Source: Limnomonas spitsbergensis (taxonomy: Eukaryota; Chlorophyta; Chlorophyceae; Chlamydomonadales). From it: a stretch of DNA of 64,000 bases. This document shows, piece after piece, positions 13,601-51,072 of this stretch. Position 1 is the stretch's first letter. Every line of letters starts with the position of its first letter. Location: the NCBI GenBank assembly GCA_037349105.1, contig JAYJMM010000124.1:964501-1028500 (forward strand), in the 5' to 3' direction. A program made the translations under genes and the position numbers. The notes under the pieces are model-generated. The model was not told where the DNA came from, did no database searches, and saw nothing but the letters and a program-made list of their open reading frames with translations.

Positions 13601-16600
13601 TGATCTAATGAGTTACACTGGGAGCACTGGGAGCATCAGCACCAAAGAAGCAAACCCAGTATTGAAATCAAGGTCCATGGGAAAACACAGTTTCAATCAG
13701 GGTTTTAATCATAGCACCCAGCATGCATAGCCAAGCCAATGCTGCGCCTAACAGCTCTCCAGCGTGTGACCCATTTCTAAAAGCAGCCACAGAGAAAATG
13801 AGGCAACCCCTTCCTTGTTTTGGCATTGCGTGACAGCATGATAGAGCGGCAAGCCGGGCTGCACAACAGCCGTGCACTTGCTATGGTAAAACCAAACTCT
13901 CCCTCTTTGGCATATTCCCTGCTCTCGCCCCCCTCCTACTCTTGCAGTAGAGCTTGCAGTGAACACCCTGCTGGGTGCCTAGCCTATCCAACCCTCAATA
14001 TTCACGGTACGAAGAAACGATGCAACAGGAAACTCGGGATGCAGGCCCAAAGACCAGCCTTTTGATCTCAAACGTCAACAGGTGCAACACCCTCCATCCT
14101 CACCAGAAAAACAACAGACAGCCGTTCAAGGTTTGTCCGGTACGGCAAGTAGGTTTTGACACGCGAGGCATCGATCAGTTCAACAGCAGGCCCCAGCAGC
14201 TGCGGTTCAGCCGGGGGGCAGACTGCAGTGGCTGGGGACGATCGATGCAGTGAAGTCCGGGAGCGCAGTGACACGATCGGGCCTGACGGCTGCAGTGCAA
14301 TTGGGGGGGAGAGAATGACGGCGGGTCTCGACAGCTGTGACTGAACTGCCAGGGGGCGGCAGTCCTGATGCAGCCCTGTGCCCTTGACCTCTAAGGCCAC
14401 TGGAGGAAGGGAAGCAGCAGGCGACTGAATGGACGTGGGCAGGAGCAGGTGTTCTGCAGGCACAGATAAGCAGCAGGCGACGGAACTGCCCACATAGGCG
14501 CTGCTGCCGCTGCCTGCCGCACGGCAAGCCTCCGGCTCTCGCCGCCGCGGCTGTGGCGAGTGAAAGCTGGGCTCCTCGGCTTCGCTGTCGGTGCACTCGT
14601 AGCAAGGCGTCTTCCTGGTCCTCTTGGACGCCACCAGGAAAGCCTTGCGCCTGCAGGAGGGGGGCGGGGGGGTGATGGGAGAAAAGGTCCCATGGGACAT
14701 GATTCGGGAAAGCTTTGTGCCTGCAGGAGGGGGGCGGGAGGGTGATGGGAGAAAAGGTCCCATGGGACATGATTCAGGAAAGCTGTGTGCCTGAAGGAGG
14801 GGGGCGGAAGGGTGATGGGAGAAAAGGTCCCTTGGGACATGATTCAGGAAAGCTGTGTGCCTGCAGGAGGAGGGCGGGAGGGTGATGGGAGAAAAGGACC
14901 CTTGGGACATGATTCAGGAAAGCTTTGTGCCTGCAGGTGGGGGGCGGGAGGGTGATGGGAGAAAAGGTCCCTTGGGACATGATTCAGGAAAGCTTTGTGC
15001 CTGCAGGTGGGGGGCGGGAGGGTGATGGGAGAAAAGGTCCCTTGGGACATGATTCAGGAAAGCTTTGTGCCTGCAGGTGGGGGGCGGGAGGGTGATGGGA
15101 GAAAAGGACCCTTGGGACATGATTCAGGAAAGCCTTGCGCCTGCAGGAGTCGGGCGGGAGGTGCGCGAAGATGATGATGATGAGGGTGATCGGATGAATA
15201 CGTCTCATTGGACATGATGCCTTACAACAAAAAAGCAAAAACATGGAGTGAGCGGCTGTAGGAAACTGATACGGGGACTTAGTAGAGTCCTGCTCCTGCG
15301 GCTAAGCAGGTGACGCTCTTTCATCACTGCGTCTGGTGTTAATTCATTCATGACTGGATTGAGTTCCCCATATATGTATACCATACCAACCCTTTTCAAC
15401 AATCGGTGACGAACAGCAACTATTATAGTGCGCACCAGACCACATGCTGGGCGGCCATCGCTGGGCAGATGTTCACTTACCATGTAAAGGCTTACCTCGC
15501 AAGCCTGATGCTGGTCCGGCAATTTTTGACCAGAAGTATCTGAAGCACTGTGAAAAAAGCACTGGCTATCATTCGGACCGGTACCCAGTTTTCACTCACT
15601 CATTGATTTACTGGCATTTTGTACCTACGGGCCCCACCAGCCCACCTCCCTTTTTAGCTGACTTTGTGTTTGCCAACGTGGCCGAGCTTTATTTAAGCCG
15701 GGCGCAGAGGTGTTATGTCATTAACCGACCCACCTCCGGAGATCCACTGAGCGGCACAGCATGATCTTGAACACCATGCCCGACAGGAAAACGGCCAGAA
15801 ACAGCGCACCGCCGTAGGGCTGCCGCTGGCCTCCCAGCACCAAAGTGAGGTGCAGCAAGTCGCGCAGCAGCACGGCCGGAGCATGTTGCCGGCCGGTCAG
15901 TGGCGTACCGAAGAAGAACACTGCGCCAGGAAATGCAGTCGTGACGGCAGCCGGCATGTCGCTCAGGCAGCCTGTGAAAACTGTGGCCATGGCCTCGTGC
16001 AGGCGACCTGCAGGATAACACATAACGCAGATTAGTCAAAGTGATCGTTAGAAGATGGAATGGACTAGAATCTGTAGAGATGGGTGTACCCCCAACGGTC
16101 ATTGGTGGTTTTCACACCATCCAGGCATGCACCCATCATAGTTAGTTGGTTGCTACCTCAGTGGGCAATTAGAGGCAATACCAGTGATAAGGGGGGAACT
16201 AAAATCCATGGCACCTTGGGCACCATGATGTGGGCACCTCGCTTCTAAAAATGTCATCAAAGCTAGATAAGAATGGAATCGAAAATAAGGGACTGGAAGG
16301 AACTATTCAGTCAGCAGCGCAAGATCTGCTTTGCATGACCACATGGGTGTGCGCATCGTTCTGGATCAGGTGCTGTGGCACAGAATCTGTACTGGTCCAA
16401 TTATGGAACATCAGGAAGACCAGATTTGTCCCATGAGGACTGTAGGGGAACAGTACAGACTCCCGGACTTCAAATGTCGTCGTGATTGCGAATAGCTGTC
16501 GACATCTAGATGTGGATGCCGCGGACAGCAGAGAGCATAGTGGCCCCTCTGTTTCACAACTTTCCCTCTCATTTAAATTTTGGTGACGGGGCAGAGCAGG

Positions 16601-17790: not shown

Positions 17791-17892
17791 ATCGTTGAAG
17801 AGTGAGAAGGGCCGAACGATCGGTGACACCGGGGGGTGGTCGATCGATGGGACATCGTGTTGGTACGACGGAGGGTTTGCAAAAAGCTCTAA

Positions 17893-19449
17893 TATGCCTC
17901 CAATGGCTGTCGGTACCCTCGGTCTTATCCAGTCCTCGAAGGTTCGTAGAAGGATGCCTGACGCGGCCTTTGTCCAGGGTCGCCGCCGCGGCCACTGCCC
18001 GATAGGTTAAGGGACAGAAAAATACAGGGGTTCTAATATGTAATCAATGTCAATTCGAAGGCCTAAAATTTTCCGCAGACTGTGGAAGTTCCGAGGAGGG
18101 GGGGGGGGGTCCTCGGAAAAAATGCCGCACGTGGGTCTTCTAAAGGTCTGCGGAGCAGTTCCACAGACCCCGTTTCTGTACGACAGGGCCTGCGGAGGAG
18201 TTCCGCAGTCAATCAGAAACGGGCTGACAGCCTGTCAGCACGTTTCCGATTGAGGACCCCGGAACAAACGTGTACGACGGTCTTCTGGTCTTCGGGAGAT
18301 TTCCGGGGAGGGTGTTTCTGCAAACACCCCGGAGCCACACACCGGAACGTGAGGCCACGTAATCTTGCGTGGTTCAGGGTTTACTACGGTATTGCTGAAT
18401 GTGGTCTATATGTTCTCTGCGCTGTTGCTGCTGCTTCTGCTTCTGCTGCCGATGATAATGATGATGATAGGGACGACTCGCTCGCGGAGTGACCAAGGCC
18501 GAGGCGGCCCGCGGCCTTTCTGCAGGGCCGCCCCCATCACTACCGCCCAATGAGATCATGGGAAGAAAAATGCGGCGATTCATATTTATAAACAAAAGCT
18601 ATTCGAAGGCCTGAAAACTCTCCGGGGTCTTTGGAATTTCCGGGGAGGGGGGGGGGTCCCCGGAAAAACAAGAGACGTACTGTACGACTCTTGGTGGTCT
18701 TAAGGCTCCGGAGATTTTCCGGGGTCCAGTGTTTCAGCTCAAAACACACCGGAAACACCCCGGAAAGTTTCCGGGGTCCAATCGGAAACGTGCTGTGTTT
18801 CTGATTGACTGCGGAGGGAAAAAAAGTACGACGGTCTAATGGCCTGCGGAAGAGTTCCGCAGAGGTCGTTTCTGATTGGACCCTGCGGAACGAGACCGTG
18901 CAGGGTTCAGGGCGTACTGTAGTATTGCCGATTGTGTGCACATTATCCCTTCATTTCTCTTACTCTCCACAACGTTTCGACCACATCTCTTCCTAATAAC
19001 GATATGCAAAGGCGAACATCAGGGGAGTGTTGAACGGCATGGTCTGACGTGTGGTTTGGGTGAGGATCCGGCCGTCATCTGCCAAACTTTTTGGGTCCAC
19101 GAATTCCTGTGCGTTATCAGAATATCAGGCCACTGCTGCTGCTGCTGCTGCAGCGGCTGCTGTCTCGAAGGGTCGTAGAAGGATGCCTGACGCGGCCTTT
19201 GTCCAGGGTCGCCGCCGCGGCCACTGCCCGATAGGTCCATGGACAGAAAAATATAGGGGTTCTAATATATAATTAATGTCATTTCGAAGGCCTAAATTTT
19301 CCGCAGACTGTGGAAGTTCCGAGGAGGGGGGGGGGGGGTCCTCGGAAAAAAGGCCGCACGTGGGTCTTCATAAGGCCTGCGGAGCAGTTCCACTGACCCC
19401 GTTTCTGTACGACAGGGCCTGCGTTGGAGTTCCGCAGTCAATCAGAAAC
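17893..19449. mobile_element. A-C-B nest of small inverted-repeat elements, unit 1
   Basis: Contains the right end of element A (to 18220), the whole of C (18236-18795) and of B (18797-19449). A and B are bounded by GTTTCTGATTGACTGCGGA and its reverse complement; C by CAGCACGTTTCCGATTG and its reverse complement. Each has a 9-bp hairpin with an all-G loop: TTCCGAGGA/TCCTCGGAA at 18089-18118 and 19317-19347, and TTCCGGGGA/TCCCCGGAA at 18638-18665. GTACGAC sits beside the inner ends. No protein is encoded that I recognise. Confidence 0.7.
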
Positions 19450-19542
19450 AGACTGATATTACTGTCGTTATAAGAACAAGTATCACTCGCTTTCAGCTCG
19501 CTGTCCGGAGGGGCAGAAGTGTGGCAAAGGAAGGGTGGCTGG

Positions 19543-24113: not shown

Positions 24114-25397
24114 ATGGCCTCTCGCCAATCTGCACGTATTGCCAACTCAGCAGTTGGCAATATGCAGGTCGAAGGTGAACATGTTCCAGCACTTGCTGCC
24201 GCGGCAGCCCCAGCCATTGTCATGGTCCCGGCTGCCAATGCCCCGGCCATTGCCGCGGTCATCGCCGTGGCAGCTCCAGTACTTGCGCAAGCTCCAGCCC
24301 CAGCTCCAGCTCCGGCATCAAACGCTGACGACGAGACGCCCCAGGAACGGGTCACGAGGCTGCTCAACCGTGCAGCCGCACAAGCTCGAGACGCACACAT
24401 GGCCGGAGGGTCTGCTGATCCGCCGCACGACCAAGCTCGAGGTATGGACCCAGTCTTGCTATCGCAGATCATGGCTGTTATAGCTTTGACTCATCGAGAA
24501 TTGCCTAGACATGTTGCCGAGTCACTAGTCCAAGCCCGACAGCTTACCGCTGATCGACCTTCCCGTACAGGTGCCCTCCCAGTCCCCAAGTCGCTGGGCA
24601 AACAGCTGTTCTTGATCGCTATCCAGAAGCCACACCTCCTAGAGGCGGCAATCGAGGAGGTCCGCCGCTGGCTGGTGACCCACAACCACGAGTACCCAGC
24701 AAACCTGCCGAGCTTCATCGATGACATCGAAGTCAAAGACTTTGTCAACACGTACTTGTCCATAAACGAGGCTTTCGAGCAGGCTGCCTTCATCAAGGCG
24801 ATCCAGAACTACATTACTGGCGAGGTACGCACTAGTGCCGAGTTAGCTCTTGAACAGCTAGTCAGCCGCAAAATCTCCCAGGCCGATGACCCAGTCCCTA
24901 GATACGCTCAGCGATTTTTGCAAGCATCCAGGCAGTTGCCAAACGAGTCTCAAGCTAGCCTGTGTGCTCATTACCTAGCCGGCCTGCGCCCAGTCCTGCG
25001 TCAACGATGCATACTAGACCGTGACGGAAACACATGGCAAACCCTCGATTCCTTGATCAAGTACTCTTTCAGCGAGGCTATCCGCCTGAACGCAGACTCA
25101 AGCCCAGTTCCATCCCTTCCCAAGCAGGGGTACACTCCAGTCCGTGGCGACCGCGGGCGTGCAGCACCCGCGGTTGGCGAAAAGAAGAGGAAACCAGAGG
25201 GCCCCCCAGGACCCCCCAACCCAGGCCCAGGCCGATCCGAGTCAAGGCAGCACAAGGCACCCCCTGAAAAGTGCCCGTATTACAAGTTCATCGGGAAGCT
25301 GTCCCAGGCCGGCAAGATGTCCCTGAGCGAGTACGGGCTGTGCTGGTACTGCCGCGGAGCAGTCCACAACGCCACCGAGTGCCCAGACAAGCGCTAG
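24114..25397 (+). CDS. gag: Gag polyprotein of the chromovirus
   Basis: 427 codons from ATG 24114 to TAG 25395-25397. The N-terminus (about residues 20-70) is Ala/Pro-rich low complexity. The middle (about 100-330) is the capsid-like helical region with …FVNTYLSINEAFEQAAFI… and …RYAQRFLQASRQLP…. A basic Pro/Gly linker follows. The C-terminus carries one CCHC zinc knuckle, CWYCRGAVHNATEC (C-x2-C-x4-H-x4-C), for RNA packaging. The next 22 codons and all of pol are open in the same frame, so only the UAG separates gag from pol. Intact apart from that stop. Confidence 0.93.
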   Translation: MASRQSARIANSAVGNMQVEGEHVPALAAAAAPAIVMVPAANAPAIAAVIAVAAPVLAQAPAPAPAPASNADDETPQERVTRLLNRAAAQARDAHMAGGSADPPHDQARGMDPVLLSQIMAVIALTHRELPRHVAESLVQARQLTADRPSRTGALPVPKSLGKQLFLIAIQKPHLLEAAIEEVRRWLVTHNHEYPANLPSFIDDIEVKDFVNTYLSINEAFEQAAFIKAIQNYITGEVRTSAELALEQLVSRKISQADDPVPRYAQRFLQASRQLPNESQASLCAHYLAGLRPVLRQRCILDRDGNTWQTLDSLIKYSFSEAIRLNADSSPVPSLPKQGYTPVRGDRGRAAPAVGEKKRKPEGPPGPPNPGPGRSESRQHKAPPEKCPYYKFIGKLSQAGKMSLSEYGLCWYCRGAVHNATECPDKR

Positions 25398-28213
25398 GAA
25401 TTTCAGCAAGGGGCACTTCCAGGCCCACCCCTTGTTTCAAGATGCAATGTATGCACCGCTGTTGTGTCCAGTTTGAGCGTTCTCATGTCTGCTAGCCGTT
25501 TGATATTTTCGAATATCTGTTGTAACAAGCAAGGAACATGTACCACTGCTCTCCCAGTTATCTTGTCCCAGTCCAAACAACAGTCACACATTTTTGTAGC
25601 GAAAGAGAGAGCGACAGCTCGTCAATTCCTACGCTCCAGGCCTAACACCAGTACTTGTCTCCTAGTCTCGTCCAGAAATTCAGCGGGTCTGAAAGAGCTC
25701 TTGAAAAACGCGCCTTTGATCCACACCTTTGATTCTGATTCACAACTCGGAACAACCATGAACAAGAAGGGAAAACCCTCAAAAATCCTAGCCTTCCTTG
25801 TACCACCAGATTTACGAGAAGTTGCAACATGCCGAGCCCTAGACGATGACCCAGCCAGTGGAAAATCCCTTGCCACTATCTATGACGGCCAAGCACATGG
25901 TCGAAAATTATCCTGTCTCTTTGATTCTGGCGCTAGTTCAAGTTTCATTAGTTCCAGACTAGTCAAGAAAATGGGCCTCCCCGTTCGTAATTCCAGATAC
26001 AAGTCAGTGGCCACTGCGTCCGATCAAGATGTCCCTGTTGCCGGGGCGGTGACATTTAAAATTATGCTCGGCCGGGCTGCTTTTGAAATCACTGCCCACG
26101 TCCTGTCCGAGTTCTTAGAGTCCGTTGACGTCATCATTGGCGAGGATTTCATGAAGACGCATTCCTGTGGCATAACATACAATCCTGATTCGTTGAGGCT
26201 TCTATCACCCAATGGGGATGAAGTCGTCCTAGACAAACGCGTCTACCGTGGCACTGCCGGTGCATCCGCCCGTACAGTGAAGACCACCGCCCCTATGCCC
26301 AACAGTCCTGCTTTGCAGAATTCGATGGAAGACGAACGCCCCCTGCCAGATCAAATCCCAGCTGACCTCGCCGTGAGATACCTCAACTCCGGTCGATACA
26401 AGTCCTTCGTCGCGGTCCTTACGCCTCACGAGCTAAGCCCAGATGACAGTGAGGTCGACCTTGATAGGGTACCAAACCAACCCAGTGGAGAACCAGTCGA
26501 GACCCAGCCATGCAAACTTGACGTGAACATGGACCATGTGCCACCAGCCATGCAAACTGACCTGCGCAAACTGATTGACAGTTTTGCAGACATTTTCAGT
26601 GAAACTCCTCAAGCCGGTGGAGCTAATATCCCACCCCTCGAGCACACAATCGATCTTGTCCCCGGTGCGAAGCCCCCTTTCCGAAGGAACTGTCGCCTTT
26701 CTCCCAGTGAAATGATCGAGCTCAAGTCACAAGTTACCGAACTCCTAGCGAAGGGAATCATCACCCCTATCAATTCTCCATACGGAGCTCCAGTCCTCTT
26801 TGTCAAGAAACCAAGTGGTGGCTTCAGGTTTTGCCTTGATTACCGAGCCCTCAATGAAATCACTGTCAAGCTCCGATATCCGCTACCGCGCATTGATGAC
26901 CTGCTGGATGCAGCCCGCGGTGCCACTTGTTACTCCAGCCTTGACATGGCAGGTGGCTTTCACCAGCTGCTGATTTCCGAGGAAGACGTGCCTAAAACCG
27001 CGTTCGCGACACCATTCGGTCACTATGCATGGCGATGTCTGCCTATGGGACTTTCCAACGCGCCCAGCCAGTACCAGAGTACTGTTAACAAGATCTTCCA
27101 GTCCCTGTCCTTCGTGCTGATTTACATCGATGACATCCTCATCCTGTCGCAATCCCCAGCAGAACATCTAGACCACTTGAACCAGGTGTTTACGAAGATT
27201 CGTGAAGCCGGGCTGCAAGTGCGCTTTTCGAAGTGCAGATTTTTACAAGAACAAGTCAAGTACCTAGGCCACATTCTTTCCAAAGAGGGAGTGCGCGCAG
27301 ACCCAGAAAGACTTCGTACCCTGACCGAGTGGGAATTCCCAACCAATGCCACAGGCATACTCCAGTTCCTGGGACTTGCGAATTATTTTCGCAAATTCGT
27401 ACCTAACCTGTCGCGACTAGCAGCTCCCCTGCACCAGCTCACCAAGAAAAAAGTACAATTCACCAAGGGCGAAGATGCCATCCTAGCATTTGAAGCCATC
27501 AAGGAGGCGTTAGCTTCACCTCCAGTCCTAGCGTACCCGAATCCAGACTTGCCCTACGAACTCGTATCTGACGCATCCATGACAGGTTGTGGTGCAGTAC
27601 TCACCCAGCAGGGCCGACCAGTCGCGTACTTCTCCTCCAAGTTCAGCCCAGCCGAGCATAATTACACCACAGGTGAACAAGAACTTCTAGGAATCATCAA
27701 GGCACTCAAAGAATGGCGCTGCTATCTTGAGGGCAGCCAAGGACTTTCAATTGTCACTGATCACAATCCCTTGACATTTTTCACCAAGCAACCGACCCTG
27801 TCCAGAAGACAAGCGCGATGGAGCGAATTCATGTCGAGGTTCCAGTTTTCAGTCCGCTACCGGCCCGGTGCAACCAACCCTGCTGACTCCCTGTCGAGAT
27901 TGCCACACCAAGGTGAGGCAGCAGCGCTCATGCTTTTCGCGATCACAGTAAACGAGTCCAGTCCAGACCTCATGCAGCAAATAAAAGCTGAATCCCTGAC
28001 AGATCTAGATTTCAAGGACCCAACTGTCACAAAACAGTGGTCACTCCAGCATGGCTACTGGTCATTCCGCGGTCGAATCATTGTTCCAGCCACTGTCCGA
28101 GCACGTGTCCTGAAAGAGCACCATGCAACCCTCATTGCCGGCCATTTCAGCTGGACCAAGACTCTAGACTTGATTCAGCGACAGTTCTGGTGGCCCAGCA
28201 TGGCTGCTGATGT
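25398..28213 (+). CDS. pol: Pol polyprotein, part 1: protease, RT, RNase H, integrase start
   Basis: Open from directly after the gag UAG to the point where the hAT-like element breaks in. In order: aspartic protease LFDSGASSSFIS (about 25917); reverse transcriptase with CLDYRALNEI, SSLDMAGGFHQL and the catalytic YIDD at about 27122; RNase H with VSDASMTGCGA, GEQELLGI and TDHNPL; and the first half of the integrase zinc finger (EHHATLIAGHFSW). The frame runs on into the inserted element and stops at 28499. No ATG is obvious at the start, consistent with expression as a Gag-Pol fusion. Catalytic residues look intact. Confidence 0.95.
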
Positions 28214-29384
28214 CAGGGTTACCCAGTACGGGCCGTATTGGCCTAAAATCCCGTACCGTATCCGTACCGTACCGTACCGTTTGCAACACGGCCAAGTACG
28301 GTCGCCATTTCCTGCACTGCATGACTGCATGAGAGCGATGGAGGTAGCGCTGCGAACAGGAATGCAGCGTACACGGCTGATTCGCATTGGATTTTGCAGC
28401 CGTCATCGAAGGCTGGCCAGGCCAAGCGTGGGCTATACAAATTTTGTAATTATATTATCGTCAACACTACGCGATTTACCAATCACCTCGCGGGCATAAC
28501 AGGACAAGTTGCGGCGTGTAAGACGTTAGGACGGGTGATACAGGCATATTGCGGTGATGTCGTGTGATCGTCTCCCTCGTCTGGCAAATCCACACCGTCC
28601 ACAGTCCACACATCCAGGGCATCAAAATCTACGTAAGCTCGCTCGCTTCCAGTGGTAAAGAGGCATTCGTTGCTCGTGAAAGTACAAGTCTAACCCAAAA
28701 CCTAGTGGCAATAAGACAGAACTTGGCACCAAGTCACAATCCAAAGCTGCATAGAGGGAGGAGGGCAGGAGGCCAGGAGGAGTAGGAGCCCATGAGTCCA
28801 GGACTCCCAGGAGGGAGGCAAGACACAGGAGCTCCGTGTCTCCTTACGAAGTGATTTCCATGCATGCCTTGCAACTCAGCAACTATGCAAGGTGATTCTG
28901 AGGCCTCTTGTTTCTATTGCTATATTCATGCATGTAAAATTTCATGTGCCATGCTGGTGGGTAGCGTTTATATGGACTAGCTGAATTACAGAAATGCTGA
29001 ATGGCATGTTGGAACATTGTAATGGCGATCTGTGAGGAGTTTGGGACTGCATCAATGATCATATTTTCTCCTATCATGTCAGCCTGGTAAATCTGCATGC
29101 ATGCATGGAGATCCTTGGTGGTTATTTGGGGGCCATGCAAAAATTGCATGGGGTCTGTCATGCAGCCATGCAGTATGTCAGGATGTGCATGGGATCAAAC
29201 AGTCATGTGAGTGTTGCATGCATGTCTTTCTCTGTGTGGATCCTGCTGTTCTGAGCCTTGAAAATGGGAAAAATCTTGGACCGTATTGCCCTACCGTACC
29301 GTCCCTTTTGTCCGTACCGTATCCGTACCGTACCGCACCGTATTCCCGTACCGTGTTTCCGTACCGGGTTACCCTGGCTGATGT
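28206..29384 (+). repeat. 8-bp target duplications GCTGATGT around hAT-like element A
   Basis: GCTGATGT at 28206-28213 and 29377-29384 flank the insertion. Removing the element and one copy restores an uninterrupted integrase frame, so these are true target duplications. Confidence 0.96.
28214..29376. mobile_element. hAT-like non-autonomous element A, copy in chromovirus pol
   Basis: 1163 bp with inverted ends CAGGGTTACCCAGTACGG / CAGGGTAACCCGGTACGG and an 8-bp target duplication. Immediately inside each end are tandem CCGTA pentamers (about ten on the left). No transposase frame. A sister copy with a few indels is at 42885-44042. It splits the integrase zinc finger between its His and Cys pairs. 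Confidence 0.95.
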
Positions 29385-30546
29385 CCAACAGTTCGTGTCC
29401 ACATGCCAAACATGCCAAGCAAACAAGGCCTCATGCAAACGACCCTATGGGTTGCTCCAGCCCTTGCCCATCCCAGACACTAGGTGGCACACTGTCACTA
29501 TGGACTTCGTGTTCGATCTTCCCATGTCTTCAGAGAAAAACGATGGAATCATGGTCATTGTTGACAAGCTTACCAAGTATGTCTGCCTAGCACCAGTCCA
29601 GAAATCCAGTACCTCAGAGGACATAGCACGAGCCTTTATCAAACATGTTTACCAACACCATGGCCTACCGAAAAATATTATATCGGATCGAGATGTGCGT
29701 TTTACCTCACAGTTCTGGCGCAATATGTGCACCCGCATGCGAATCGAGCCGCGTTTTTCAACTGCTTTCCACCCTCAAACCGATGGGCAAACCGAGCGCA
29801 TGAACCGAGTCGTTGAAGAAGTGCTGAGGCATTTCATTGATGGAAATCATGTCACATGGGAAGAACTCTTGCCCATAGTCGCCCTGACTAAAAATAATGC
29901 AAAATCCAGCGTCACCGGGCAGAGCCCATTTTACTTGAACACCGCAAGGCACCCAAACACACCCTTGTCTGTCCAGATGCCTGACAAGCAAATCCCAGCA
30001 CTTGACGCAGTATTTGCAGACCTAGACATCACACTTGTACGAGTCCAGCAGCTTTTGCGCTCTGCCCGAGACAGACAGAAAACGTACGCTGATTCAAGAT
30101 TCCGAGCACCACACTCCTTCAAAACAGGAGATCAAGTCATGGTTTCCACCAGAAATTTCAAGTTCAAAACAGGTGTTAAGAAATTACATCCCAAATACAT
30201 CGGCCCAGTCCAGATCCTGTCTATGACACCAGGAGGCAACGCTGCGAAACTAGCATTGCCTGCCAATTACTCACGAGTTCACCCAGTTTTTCACGTGTCC
30301 CTCCTCAAGCCCTTCAAATCTTCAAGCGAATCCATGCCTGTACCCGCTGGACCTGAAGTAGAAGACGGCTTTCCGTTCTATCAAGTCGAGACACTCTTGT
30401 CCCATCGCATCCGAAAGGTTGGAAAAAGGAAAATCAAACAAGTTCTAGTCAAGTGGAAAGCATACGACGACACCCACAATTCATGGGAACCGCTTGCTAA
30501 CCTCACTCCTGACCTGCTCGAGCAAGCTAAAACATTTTTCAAATAA
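29377..30546 (+). CDS. pol: Pol polyprotein, part 2: integrase core and chromodomain
   Basis: Continues the integrase: STCQTCQANK completes the HHCC zinc finger; the catalytic core has MDFVFDLP, SDRDVRFTSQFW and HPQTDGQTERMNR, matching a D,D-35-E integrase; then the GPVQI…HPVFHVSLLKPF segment typical of gypsy elements. The last ~55 residues (YQVETLLSHRIRK… LVKWKAYDDTHNSWEP) form a chromodomain, which in this clade targets integration to modified chromatin. Ends TAA at 30544-30546. No lesion seen beyond the inserted element. Confidence 0.95.
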   Translation, partial: ADVQQFVSTCQTCQANKASCKRPYGLLQPLPIPDTRWHTVTMDFVFDLPMSSEKNDGIMVIVDKLTKYVCLAPVQKSSTSEDIARAFIKHVYQHHGLPKNIISDRDVRFTSQFWRNMCTRMRIEPRFSTAFHPQTDGQTERMNRVVEEVLRHFIDGNHVTWEELLPIVALTKNNAKSSVTGQSPFYLNTARHPNTPLSVQMPDKQIPALDAVFADLDITLVRVQQLLRSARDRQKTYADSRFRAPHSFKTGDQVMVSTRNFKFKTGVKKLHPKYIGPVQILSMTPGGNAAKLALPANYSRVHPVFHVSLLKPFKSSSESMPVPAGPEVEDGFPFYQVETLLSHRIRKVGKRKIKQVLVKWKAYDDTHNSWEPLANLTPDLLEQAKTFFK

Positions 30547-38180: not shown

Positions 38181-38370
38181 TTTGACCTAGGCTAGACTGG
38201 AAATTTGCTAACCCCAAGCTTTTCTATAAACATGTGCAAATGTACATCACGATTTGTAAGCGAAATCGATATCTGCTTCCTTGCATGAACTTTTCCTCCA
38301 CGCAATCTCGCGGAACAGGTGTGGAGGAACGGGTGGAGGAACCTTCGAAAGGGTGGAGGAACGCATTATT

Positions 38371-38399
38371 TTCCGCGGAGGGGTGGGGGGTCCGCGGAA
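38371..38399. other. G-loop hairpin, third stem type, unit 2
   Basis: TTCCGCGGA, loop GGGGTGGGGGG, TCCGCGGAA: the same 9-bp design as the A/B and C hairpins but with C-G at the variable pair. It sits in a cluster of GGTGGAGGAAC motifs (38300-38365). Also at 48610-48638 in unit 3. Confidence 0.8.
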
Positions 38400-38977
38400 C
38401 TATTGAACTATTGAGCTCATTGCCAGCGTGGCCAAGGTAATTTCCATGGCCTTTCCTTTCTACATAACGTTACTCGCAATTTTGTTTTTACCTTTCGATG
38501 TCTTCCCGGCGATTTGGCGTGGATGGGGGCAGCAAACGACGGCACTATCGATGATGGATTGATGGAGCGTGCGATTTACTGCCACACACAACAGCGAGCG
38601 ATCTACAGCCACAGATAATGTTACGTTACTTCCGTAGTCGGCCTGCAAGGGAGAGTAACAGAACGATATGCAGAAATGAAAGACACTGCAAGGAAGAATG
38701 CACGAAAGAAATGAAACAGGCGACAGGAAAGAGCGCTGCAAAGGTCACCCATACATAACTCCAACCTTCGCCATTCTTCCTCCATCTCACGCCTCGTGGA
38801 ACAGGGGTTTGGGAACATGTGGATGAACTTTTGAACACTTTCGATTTTTTTCTCCACACTTGTTTCCTTTCCCAATCAGAAACGGGTTGTTAGTTGTTAC
38901 ACGTTTCCGTACGACGGGGTTCCCGAGAAACTGCCTGTGGATAGACATTTTATTCGACGGGGCGTCATACACAGCCT

Positions 38978-40743
38978 GTTTCTGATTGACTGCGGAGAAA
39001 AAAATGTACGACGGTCTAATTGCCTGCGGAAGAGTTCCGCAGAGGTCGTTTCTGATTGGACCCTGCGGAACGAGACCGTGCAGGGTTCATGGCGTACTAT
39101 AGTATTGCCGATTGTGTGCACATTATCCCTTCATTTCTCTTTCTCTTCACAACGTTTCGACCGCATCTCTTCCTAATAACAATATGCCTCCAATGGCTGT
39201 CGGTACCCTCGGCCTTATCCAGTCCTCGAAGGTTCGTAGAAGGATGCCTGACGCGGCCTTTGTCCAGGGTCGCCGCCGCGGCCACTGCCCGATAGGTTAA
39301 GGGACAGAAAAATACAGGGGTTCTAATATGTAATTAATGTCAATTCGAAGGCCTAAAATTTTCCGCAGACTGTGGAAGTTCCGAGGAGGGGGGGGGGGTC
39401 CTCGGAAAAAAGGCCGCACGTGGGTCTTCTAAAGGTCTGCGGAGCAGTTCCACAGACCCCGTTTCTGTACGACAGGGCCTGCGGAGGAGTTCCGCAGTCA
39501 ATCAGAAACGGGCTGACAGCCTGTCAGCACGTTTCCGATTGAGGACCCCGGAACAAACGTGTACGACGGTCTTCTGGTCTTCGGGAGATTTCCGGGGAGG
39601 GTGTTTCTGCAAACACCCCGGAGCCACACACCCGCACGTGAGGCCACGTAATCTTGCGTGGTTCAGGGTGTACTACGGTATTGCTGAATGTGTGTCTATA
39701 TGTTCTCTGCGCTGTTGCTGCTGCTTCTGCTTCTGCTGCTGATGATAATGATGATGATAGGGACGACTCGCTCGCGGAGTGACCAAGGCCGAGGCGGCCC
39801 GCGGCCTTTCTGCAGGGCCGCCCCCATCACTACCGCCCAATGAGATCATGGGAAGAAAAATGCGGCGATTCATATTTATAAACAAAAGCTATTCGAAGGC
39901 CTGAAAACTCTCCGGGGTCTTTGGAATTTCCGGGGAGGGGGGGGGGTCCCCGGAAAAACAAGAGACGTACTGTACGACTCTTGGTGGTCTTAAGGCTCCG
40001 GAGATTTTCCGGGGTCCAGTGTTTCAGCTCAAAACACACCGGAAACACCCAGGAAAGTTTCCGGGGTCCAATCGGAAACGTGCTGTGTTTCTGATTGACT
40101 GCGGAGGGGAAAAAAGTACGACGGTCTAATGGCCTGCGGAAGAGTTCCGCAGAGGTCGTTTCTGATTGGACCCTGCGGAACGAGACCGTGCAGGGTTCAG
40201 GGCGTACTGTAGTATTGGTATTGCCGATTGTGTGCACATTATCCCTTCATTCTCTTACTCTCCACAACGTTTCGACCACATCTCTTCCTAATAACGATAT
40301 GCAAAGGCGAACATCAGGGGAGTGTTGAACGGCATGGTCTGACGTGTGGTTTGGGTGAGGATCCGGCCGTCATCTGCCAAACTTTTTGGGTCCACGAATT
40401 CCTGTGCGTTATCAGAATATCAGGCCACTGCTGCTGCTGCTGCTGCAGCGGCTGCTGTCTCGAAGGGTCGTAGAAGGATGCCTGACGCGGCCTTTGTCCA
40501 GGGTCGCCGCCGCGGCCACTGCCCGATAGGTCCATGGACAGAAAAATACAGGGGTTCTAATATATAATTAATGTCATTTCGAAGGCCTAAAATTTTCCGC
40601 AGACTGTGGAAGTTCCGAGGAGGGGGGGGGGGTCCTCGGAAAAAAGGCCGCACGTGGGTCTTCTAAAGGCCTGCGGAGCAGTTCCACTGACCCCGTTTCT
40701 GTACGACAGGGCCTGCGTTGGAGTTCCGCAGTCAATCAGAAAC
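38978..40743. mobile_element. A-C-B nest of small inverted-repeat elements, unit 2
   Basis: A 38978-39509 (ends GTTTCTGATTGACTGCGGA), C 39525-40085 (ends CAGCACGTTTCCGATTG, with similarity extending through GGACCCCGGAA) and B 40087-40743 (ends as A). A to C spacing is 15 bp and C to B one base. Hairpins: 39379-39407 (A-T stem type), 39928-39955 (G-C type) and 40613-40641 (A-T type). A and B are paralogous over roughly 500 bp and share GCCTGACGCGGCCTTTGTCC, but differ in a central insert that in B holds a CTG microsatellite. Confidence 0.75.
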
Positions 40744-40836
40744 AGACTGATATTACTGTCGTTATAAGAACAAGTATCACTCGCTTTCAGCTCGCTGTCC
40801 GGAGGGGCAGAAGTGTGGCAAAGGAAGGGTGGCTGG

Positions 40837-48419: not shown

Positions 48420-49216
48420 TTTGACCTAGGCTAGACTGGAAATTTGCTAACCCCAAGCTTTTCTATAAACAGGTGCAAATGTACATCACGATTTGTAAGC
48501 GAAATCGATATCTGCTTCCTTGCATGAACTTTTCCTCCACGCAATCTCGCGGAACAGGTGTGGAGGAACGGGTGGAGGAACCTTCGAAAGGGTGGAGGAA
48601 CGCATTATTTTCCGCGGAGGGGTGGGGGGTCCGCGGAACTATTGAACTATTGAGCTCATTGCCAGCGTGGCCAAGGTAATTTCCATGGCCTTTCCTTTCT
48701 ACATAACGTTACTCGCAATTTTGTTTTTACCTTTCGATGTCTTCCCGGCGATTTGGCGTGGATGGGGGCAGCAAACGACGGCACTATCGATGATGGATTG
48801 ATGGAGCGTGCGATTTACTGCCACACACAACAGCGAGCGATCTACAGCCACAGATAATGTTACGTTACTTCCGTAGTCGGCCTGCAAGGGAGAGTAACAG
48901 AACGATATGCAGAAATGAAAGACACTGCAAGGAAGAATGCACGAAAGAAATGAAACAGGCGACAGGAAAGAGCGCTGCAAAGGTCACCCATACATAACTC
49001 CAACCTTCGCCATTCTTCCTCCATCTCACGCCTCGTGGAACAGGGGTTTGGGAACATGTGGATGAACTTTTGAACACTTTCGATTTTTTTCTCCACACTT
49101 GTTTCCTTTCCCAATCAGAAACGGGTTGTTAGTTGTTACACGTTTCCGTACGACGGGGTTCCCGAGAAACTGCCTGTGGATAGACATTTTATTCGACGGG
49201 GCGTCATACACAGCCT

Positions 49217-50979
49217 GTTTCTGATTGACTGCGGAGAAAAAAATGTACGACGGTCTAATTGCTTGCGGAAGAGTTCCGCAGAGGTCGTTTCTGATTGGAC
49301 CCTGCGGAACGAGACCGTGCAGGGTTCATGGCGTACTATAGTATTGCCGATTGTGTGCACATTATCCCTTCATTTCTCTTTCTCTTCACAACGTTTCGAC
49401 CGCATCTCTTCCTAATAACAATATGCCTCCAATGGCTGTCGGTACCCTCGGTCTTATCCAGTCCTCGAAGGTTCGTAGAAGGATGCCTGACGCGGCCTTT
49501 GTCCAGGGTCGCCGCCGCGGCCACTGCCCGATAGGTTAAGGGACAGAAAAATACAGGGGTTCTAATATGTAATTAATGTCAATTCGAAGACCTAAAATTT
49601 TCCGCAGACTGTGGAAGTTCCGAGGAGGGGGGGGGGGGTCCTCGGAAAAAAGGCCGCACGTGGGTCTTCTAAAGGTCTGCGGAGCAGTTCCACAGACCCC
49701 GTTTCTGTACGACAGGGCCTGCGGAGGAGTTCCGCAGTCAATCAGAAACGGGCTGACAGCCTGTCAGCACGTTTCCGATTGAGGACCCCGGAACAAACGT
49801 GTACGACGGTCTTCTGGTCTTCGGGAGATTTCCGGGGAGGGTGTTTCTGCAAACACCCCGGAGCCACACACCCGCACGTGAGGCCACGTAATCTTGCGTG
49901 GTTCAGGGTTTACTACGGTATTGCTGAATGTGTGTCTATATGTTCTCTGCGCTGTTGCTGCTGCTTCTGCTTCTGCTGCTGATGATAATGATGATGATAG
50001 GGACGACTCGCTCGCGGAGTGACCAAGGCCGAGGCGGCCCGCGGCCTTTCTGCAGGGCCGCCCCCATCACTACCGCCCAATGAGATCATGGGAAGAAAAA
50101 TGCGGCGATTCATATTTATAAACAAAAGCTATTCGAAGGCCTGAAAACTCTCCGGGGTCTTTGGAATTTCCGGGGAGGGGGGGGGGTCCCCGGAAAAACA
50201 AGAGACGTACTGTACGACTCTTGGTGGTTTTAAGGCTCCGGAGATTTTCCGGGGTCCAGTGTTTCAGCTCAAAACACACCGGAAACACCCAGGAAAGTTT
50301 CCGGGGTCCAATCGGAAACGTGCTGTGTTTCTGATTGACTGCGGAGGGAAAAAAAGTACGACGGTCTAATGGCCTGCGGAAGAGTTCCGCAGAGGTCGTT
50401 TCTGATTGGACCCTGCGGAACGAGACCGTGCAGGGTTCAGGGCGTACTGTAGTATTGCCGATTGTGTGCACATTATCCCTTCATTTCTCTTACTCTCCAC
50501 AACGTTTCGACCACATCTCTTCCTAATAACGATATGCAAAGGCGAACATCAGGGGAGTGTTGAACGGCATGGTCTGACGTGTGGTTTGGGTGAGGATCCG
50601 GCCGTCATCTGCCAAACTTTTTGGGTCCACGAATTCCTGTGCGTTATCAGAATATCAGGCCACTGCTGTTGCTGCTGCTGCAGCGGCTGCTGTCTCGAAG
50701 GGTCGTAGAAGGATGCCTGACGCGGCCTTTGTCCAGGGTCGCCGCCGCGGCCACTGCCCGATAGGTCCATGGACAGAAAAATACAGGGGTTCTAATATAT
50801 AATTAATGTCATTTGGAAGGCCTAAAATTTTCCGCAGACTGTGGAAGTTCCGAGGAGAGGGGGGGGGGTCCTCGGAAAAAAGGCCGCACGTGGGTCTTCT
50901 AAAGCTCTGCGGAGCAGTTCCACTGACCCCGTTTCTGTACGACAGGGCCTGCGTTGGAGTTCCGCAGTCAATCAGAAAC
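49217..50979. mobile_element. A-C-B nest of small inverted-repeat elements, unit 3
   Basis: A 49217-49749, C 49765-50325, B 50327-50979, with the same ends as in unit 2. Hairpins at 49618-49647 (G12 loop), 50168-50195 (G10) and 50848-50877 (loop GAGGGGGGGGGG). G-run length varies between units while stems do not. Confidence 0.75.
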
Positions 50980-51072
50980 AGACTGATATTACTGTCGTTA
51001 TAAGAACAAGTATCACTCGCTTTCAGCTCGCTGTCCGGAGGGGCAGAAGTGTGGCAAAGGAAGGGTGGCTGG

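What the first reader, a model, noticed from the sequence alone, without database searches (positions are those of the whole stretch)
38371..40743. Family of small inverted-repeat elements with G-tract hairpins whose stem base pair covaries
Elements A, C and B lie end to end (15 bp and 1 bp apart). Their terminal repeats share the core GTTTC(T/C)GATTG but continue differently (ACTGCGGA in A and B, GGACCCCGGAA in C). Each contains a 9-bp hairpin with a 10-13 nt G loop. The stem is TTCCG-N-GGA / TCC-N'-CGGAA, and the variable pair is A-T in A and B, G-C in C and C-G in a third hairpin at 38371. Pairing is kept while sequence changes in three ways, and loop G-number drifts between the array units. 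That suggests selection on a folded nucleic acid (cruciform, G-quadruplex or RNA). GTACGAC is repeated beside the inner ends. I know of no described family with this layout.
Basis: partly seen in the sequence, partly recalled or inferred. Interest (0 to 1): 0.8.

Follow-up and report, generated by a model that had tools for sequence, protein, structure and literature searches.

The report
Nested jumping DNA with shared G-hairpin
These are small non-coding jumping-DNA elements nested in one another; besides their tips, otherwise unrelated families share one short G-filled hairpin, which suggests that the hairpin helps them to move.

Summary
A (38972-39515), C (39525-40085) and B (in pieces, to 40749) are MITEs in a 260-Mb eukaryotic genome (perhaps a green alga). 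Their terminal repeats are longer than read: CAGCNYGTTTCYGATTG has 671 exact genome copies, reversed control 0. Of 78 non-redundant repeat pairs, 68 have an exact 3-bp target duplication (about 1.2 by chance), 56 of these 68 TNA; the target consensus is GAC|TNA|GTC: a PIF/Harbinger pattern. A and C inserted into B's left end; the third hairpin sits in an older MITE (F). The hairpin occurs 277 times exactly, control 0, mostly at a family-typical distance from one end. Representative F shares only terminal repeat and hairpin with representatives of A, C, D, G. The variable pair is Watson-Crick in 74 of 79 de-duplicated copies, but it differs between families; within families 34 of 34 stem changes are one-sided, so a folded RNA or quadruplex is not supported. 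Best reading: PIF/Harbinger-type MITEs with a dyad-symmetric internal module aiding transposition. No coding partner with this exact repeat was found; the module's function is inferred.

The parts
38287..38889 (+). older F-type MITE, left ~44 bp not recognisable; right terminal repeat 38873-38889 followed by TTA
   Evidence: 85.5% identity over 607 columns (38287-38886) to the intact 641-bp F element L041:410-1050; sequence
38371..38399 (+). G-loop hairpin of the F element, variable pair C-G
38967..38969 (.). left 3-bp target duplication (ATA) of element B
   Evidence: sequence; matches ATA at 40750-40752
38972..39515 (+). MITE A, 544 bp, TIRs CAGCCTGTTTCTGATTGACTGCGGA / rc CAGCCCGTTTCTGATTGACTGCGGA; TSD ACA (38969-38971, 39516-39518)
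39379..39407 (+). G-loop hairpin of A, variable pair A-T, 108 bp from A's right end
39517..39524 (+). displaced first 8 bases of element B (CAGCCTGT) between A and C
   Evidence: sequence; inferred from nested target duplications
39525..40085 (+). MITE C, 561 bp, TIR CAGCACGTTTCCGATTG both ends; TSD TGT (39522-39524, 40086-40088)
39928..39955 (+). G-loop hairpin of C, variable pair G-C, 130 bp from C's right end
40086..40749 (+). remainder of MITE B (A family, with extra interior sequence); right TSD ATA 40750-40752
40613..40641 (+). G-loop hairpin of B, variable pair A-T, 108 bp from B's right end

Best explanation
[quoted passage not shown] (Shown: ends, duplications, target, copy number. 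Inferred: which transposase, and excision.) The elements also insert at or near the ends of resident copies, giving arrays that share a target duplication and, in the window, A and C inside the left terminus of B. The G-filled hairpin (26-31 bp) is a subterminal cis-element with two inverted half-sites (TTCCG-N-GGA / TCC-N'-CGGAA) around a G tract of usually 8-13, on one side of each element. I think a DNA-binding part of the transposition complex (transposase or the Harbinger Myb/SANT partner) recognises the two half-sites as a dyad and so helps the complex to form; the pair that covaries between families is then one that the protein does not read but whose symmetry it tolerates. This last step is inference.
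For: MITE and superfamily: 671 exact TIRs, control 0; 68 of 78 non-redundant TIR pairs with an exact 3-bp duplication (about 1.2 by chance), 1 of 78 with a 4-bp match, 56 of 68 TNA. In 50 solo sites, counted without imposing symmetry, C precedes the duplication in 28 and G follows it in 23; two bases further out G is on the left in 29 and C on the right in 27. TIR layout C(N)5GTTTC beside plant PIF TIRs, e.g. ZmPIFa GGGCCCGTTTGTTT (table passage of PMC6327408). The genome holds 14 matches to the Harbinger DDE domain PF13359; one lies 0.7 kb from a terminus TTA+CAGTGTGTTTCCAGTGGAGGAA, and three other held copies of that terminus follow TAA, TAA and TCA. Two further DDE-bearing loci, about 86% alike in their best block, both have CTGTGTTTCCATTGGAG at the left edge of their shared part. 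Module: 277 exact hairpins, control 0; end of the element 107-108 bp to the right in 23 of 24 A-T copies, 129-131 in 38 of 44 G-C copies, 127-129 to the left in 12 of 21 C-G copies; representative F against A, C, D and G: best hit is the hairpin each time (E 2e-5 to 1.4e-4), TIR next where listed. Internal sequences are known to raise or lower mPing transposition (passages of PMC9921582).
Against: No coding element with the exact CAGC..GTTTCYGATTG repeat was found. In the 13 DDE loci held, the hairpins found lie in neighbouring MITEs (L079/L081, L082), not in the DDE-bearing stretch, and only one end of the L083 element was found. PIF/Harbinger TIRs usually start with A or G and NuwaII with GG (passages and section 8 of PMC4482050); these start with C. 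The two halves of the target show no extra correlation within a site. Spacing is not rigid: 6 of 44 G-C copies and 9 of 21 C-G copies deviate (C-G: 35, 116 and 152 bp) or have no recognised end. The hairpin is not the most conserved stretch between related families: windows doing as well are 99 of 545 (A-C), 120 of 547 (A-G), 64 of 527 (C-G), 37 of 636 (C-D), 11 of 627 (A-D), 101 of 604 (F1-F2). TTCC/GGAA boxes are only weakly in excess of shuffles: 24, 35, 36, 5 and 5 of 200 shuffles reach the count in A, C, G, D, F1.
Confidence: 0.5

Rival explanations
1. The elements are PIF/Harbinger-type MITEs, but the hairpin has no function: F acquired it from an A/C-type element (or the reverse) by conversion or a nested insertion with deletion, and it has ridden along since.
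For: The elements nest in each other and some are hybrids of two families' ends, e.g. L035 and L046. Within families stem changes are uncorrected. The hairpin is not specially conserved between close families.
Against: What F shares with the others is just the symmetric 28-30 bp, and the variable pair differs on both sides between families; it is kept near one end in A, C, G and most F copies.
Confidence: 0.27
2. The hairpin is kept because it folds, as RNA, cruciform or G-quadruplex.
For: Stable stems; 74 of 79 de-duplicated copies Watson-Crick at the variable pair against 34% expected if the two sides were independent.
Against: The 79 copies fall into about four lineages, so few independent events; 0 of 34 within-family changes are compensated; D keeps an A.C mismatch; 7 of 79 meet a G4 motif; no Rfam match at the gathering score in the window; relative to the nearer end the G strand is reversed in F.
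Confidence: 0.1
3. The elements belong to another superfamily with 3-bp duplications (CACTA/EnSpm-like or undescribed).
For: TIRs start CA; subterminal short repeats as in CACTA elements (recalled); no coding partner found.
Against: TNA duplication and two-sided target consensus; no CACTA/CACTG terminus among the elements listed; Harbinger DDE genes near termini of similar layout.
Confidence: 0.1
4. Stem symmetry is restored mechanically by template switching (quasi-palindrome correction) in source elements, not by selection.
For: Would give paired differences between families with one-sided decay in dead copies (inference).
Against: D has kept a mismatch in 3 held copies; no corrected copy among 110 of the other families.
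Confidence: 0.05

Closest known systems
PIF/Harbinger (PHIS) transposons and Tourist-like MITEs, in particular the NuwaII target type C|TNA|G (passages of PMC2213677 and PMC6327408; passages and section 8 of PMC4482050)
   Same: 3-bp TNA duplication, target C|TNA|G, TIR with GTT after six bases, short uniform non-coding copies, DDE_Tnp_4 genes in the same genome
   Different: TIR starts with C rather than G/A; coding partner with the same TIR not found; a shared internal hairpin module is not described in what I read
CMITEs of corals (PMC2872659: abstract and discussion read)
   Same: internal region conserved between MITE families; tandem arrays of full-sized elements
   Different: piggyBac-related; no G-filled hairpin mentioned in what I read; here the shared part is about 30 bp and the rest of F is unrelated
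mPing/mPong (PMC9921582: passages read)
   Same: PIF/Harbinger MITEs whose internal sequence affects transposition
   Different: there no specific promoting internal sequence is shared between mPing and mPong; here one is shared between families

Membership tests
MITE | short, non-coding, uniform length, high copy, TIRs and target duplication | tested here: met
   listed elements mostly 535-670 bp
PIF/Harbinger (PHIS) | 3-bp duplication TWA/TNA | tested here: met
   68 of 78 exact 3 bp, 56 of 68 TNA
PIF/Harbinger (PHIS) | extended target (C|TNA|G in NuwaII) | tested here: met
   as a consensus: C before in 28 of 50, G after in 23 of 50, both in 12 of 50
PIF/Harbinger (PHIS) | TIR G(N)5GTT, first base usually G or A | tested here: inconclusive
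   spacing to GTT kept, first base is C; the terminus near the L083 DDE gene also starts CAG
PIF/Harbinger (PHIS) | coding partner with DDE transposase (and Myb/SANT protein) and the same TIRs | tested here: inconclusive
   PF13359 genes present, three loci with termini of similar layout, none with the exact TIR; no Myb/SANT in the one second block examined, L081:6200-7150
PIF/Harbinger (PHIS) | mobilised by that transposase | not testable with these tools
   needs an assay
CACTA/EnSpm | termini CACTA/CACTG (recalled) | tested here: not met
   termini CAGC in nearly all elements listed, CACC in a few
hAT | 8-bp target duplication (recalled) | tested here: not met
   1 of 78 matches even 4 bp
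structured RNA / G-quadruplex element | compensated changes within families; G4 motif | tested here: not met
   0 of 34 within-family changes compensated; 7 of 79 G4 motif
piggyBac-related CMITE | TTAA duplication (recalled) and CC[C/T]T ends | tested here: not met

The most novel reading that the evidence does not exclude
The G-filled palindrome is a portable docking module: any pair of suitable ends that acquires it, at either end and in either orientation, becomes a good substrate for one transposase, so that unrelated MITE families converged on the same module. It would be a sequence-specific internal transposition enhancer shared between MITE families.
Probability: 0.22. Interest if true: 0.7.

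Novelty: new variant of a known kind. Interest (0 to 1): 0.45.

Why it matters
Internal sequences are known to tune MITE mobility, but in the work I read no specific one is shared between PIF/Harbinger MITEs. A hairpin of about 28 bp that two otherwise unrelated MITE groups share, present hundreds of times near one end, would turn the question of what makes a MITE successful into a direct test: remove or transplant the module and count transposition.

Tried and rejected
Rfam: no match at gathering score in the window. Hairpin in IMG/VR: 0; TIR in IMG/VR: 37 stretches with one match each, read as chance, not followed; hairpin in the prokaryote genome collection: 2 matches, read as chance, not followed. 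Candidate coding copies: L031 (6.7 kb between A ends) is A split by a gypsy element; L032 has the same spacing, its ORFs were not listed; L033/L034 hold A split by an insert with an RNase H protein; L036 is a 3,033-bp G-type element with TGA on both sides and a 2.5-kb insert whose two tested ORFs have no Pfam match. DDE loci L071/L072 share 1,346 bp at 99.6%, no TIR seen. Helical phasing of the spacings (98, 108, 118, 128-130) was considered and dropped: 35, 116 and 152 also occur. The target profile was made symmetric by adding reverse complements; one search replaces it. Fuzzy hairpin scans missed copies and were replaced; the C-family hairpin coordinates were wrong and are not used. PF04827 did not complete. 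The query began at the CAG, so its 39 matches do not test that edge. Dropped before counts: 21 of 100 listed copies as tandem or paired duplicates (the list is the first 100 of 277), 2 C/G copies; identical contexts were counted once. Organism: green alga is only a guess from named retroelement relatives, which include Haematococcus but also flowering plants and an arachnid.

Full report
What is there. The window lies in a 260,226,709-base genome of 124 contigs, eukaryotic by its chromodomain gypsy element; a green alga is only a guess. The terminal repeat is CAGC[A/C/G][C/T]GTTTC[C/T]GATTG. A runs 38972-39515 between ACA and ACA, C runs 39525-40085 between TGT and TGT, and B is interrupted: its first bases lie before A and between A and C, the rest runs to 40749, and its own duplication is ATA (38967-38969, 40750-40752). 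So B came first, and A and C then inserted into its left terminus; this order is inferred from the nested duplications. The third hairpin lies in an older F-type element (38287-38889, 85.5% to the 641-bp copy L041), and the solo repeat at 38873 is its right end.

Genome-wide. The repeat CAGCNYGTTTCYGATTG occurs 671 times exactly, 0 in the reversed control. In the loci held, 78 non-redundant repeat pairs of 480-700 bp were taken without regard to duplications: 68 have an exact 3-bp direct repeat (about 1.2 by chance), 1 of 78 matches over 4 bp, 56 of the 68 are TNA, and 18 of the 68 abut another end. Loci were fetched by similarity, so the last number is not a genome rate. The 50 solo sites, counted without imposing symmetry, give the consensus GAC|TNA|GTC: C before in 28, G after in 23, G three bases before the duplication in 29, C three bases after in 27; the two halves are not correlated within sites. 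A 3-bp TWA/TNA duplication and a C|TNA|G target are PIF/Harbinger traits (passages of PMC2213677 and PMC4482050).

The coding partner. PF13359 has 14 matches in the genome. L083 has a terminus TTA+CAGTGTGTTTCCAGTGGAGGAA 0.7 kb from its DDE gene; three other held copies of this terminus follow TAA, TAA and TCA, and its 107 bp have 39 matches, itself included. L081 and L082, about 86% alike in the best block around a DDE domain, both have CTGTGTTTCCATTGGAG at the left edge of the shared part, and L081 has the complement of GTTTCCATTGG at its right edge. GTTTCCATTGGAG occurs 210 times, control 0. The layout resembles that of the MITE repeat, but the exact MITE repeat was not found around a transposase gene; 10 of the 14 DDE places were held, 7 of them with about 1.5 kb on each side only, so the search is incomplete.

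The hairpin. The exact pattern occurs 277 times, control 0; a looser one 337 times, control 7. In 94 distinct contexts the variable pair is G-C 44, A-T 24, C-G 21, A.C 3, G.T 1, T.C 1. The end of the element lies 107-108 bp to the right in 23 of 24 A-T copies (one 130), 129-131 in 38 of 44 G-C copies (117, 235, 236 or no recognised end in the others), 118, 98 or not recognised in the three A.C copies. In the 21 C-G copies it lies to the left: 127-129 in 12, 116 in 2 (which share their flank), 35 in 2, 152 in 1, not recognised in 4. Many of these loci were fetched for MITE similarity; of the 28 hairpins fetched from the hairpin list, 27 have their own row and 24 of these 27 have a recognised end within 260 bp (my count). 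With one representative each, F shares with A, C, D and G the hairpin (E 2e-5 to 1.4e-4) and, where listed, the terminal repeat; other hits listed have E of 0.14 or more. A, C and G are related over most of their length, D to them at its ends.

Does pairing matter? Between families the variable pair is Watson-Crick in 74 of 79 de-duplicated copies of the first 100 listed, 34% expected if the sides were independent; but these are about four lineages, and D keeps A.C. Within families, 110 copies and 990 cells give 34 changes, all one-sided, 20 wobble-type and 14 unpaired; cells count copies, and 8 of the A changes are one inherited change. In the family representatives the other stem letters are the same. 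That fits a dyad-symmetric protein site better than a fold. Loop length is 8-13 in the first 100 listed, and 7 of 79 fit a G4 motif.

Against my reading. The hairpin is not outstandingly conserved between close families and the excess of TTCC/GGAA boxes is weak. Hairpins in the DDE loci held lie in MITEs beside the DDE-bearing stretch, not in it. A passenger module remains possible.

Literature. Searches on MITEs with G-quadruplex and hairpin, with Harbinger and green algae, tandem arrays, internal or subterminal sequence, nested insertion and target preference and conserved internal, G-rich or palindromic sequence listed no paper that from title and abstract start describes such a module; this covers the held open-access library and the rows shown only. 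The closest read were the coral CMITEs (abstract and discussion) and mPing (passages); a 2025 review of plant MITEs was searched for passages only.

Noticed in passing
window ~17,890-19,466; 38,870-40,760; 49,109-50,996: The nested array is present three times in the window (two copies 10,239 bp apart; 99% and, over most of its length, 98% to the middle copy).
   Followed up: partly
G000 C3:690-710 kb and C4:974-1106 kb: Tandem spacing of about 4.08 kb and about 9.2 kb (with gaps) of a G-C hairpin, i.e. larger tandem arrays carrying a hairpin MITE.
   Followed up: no
window 24,114-30,546: Chromodomain gypsy retrotransposon; a 98%-identical protein is in a 6.3-kb ENA contig.
   Followed up: partly
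L036:356-3388: 3,033-bp G-type element with TGA on both sides and a 2.5-kb insert of unknown origin.
   Followed up: partly
L033:936-4025: Protein with RNase H and PCIF1_WW matches in an insert that splits an A-type MITE.
   Followed up: no
L071, L072: Two copies of a Harbinger DDE gene, 99.6% alike over 1,346 bp without terminal repeats, perhaps retrocopies or a domesticated gene.
   Followed up: partly
L009, L005, L008, L013: Arrays of two to three elements separated by exactly one shared 3-bp duplication (TTA, TAA or TGA).
   Followed up: partly
window 14,635-15,161: 70-bp minisatellite, 7.5 copies, 94% matches.
   Followed up: no
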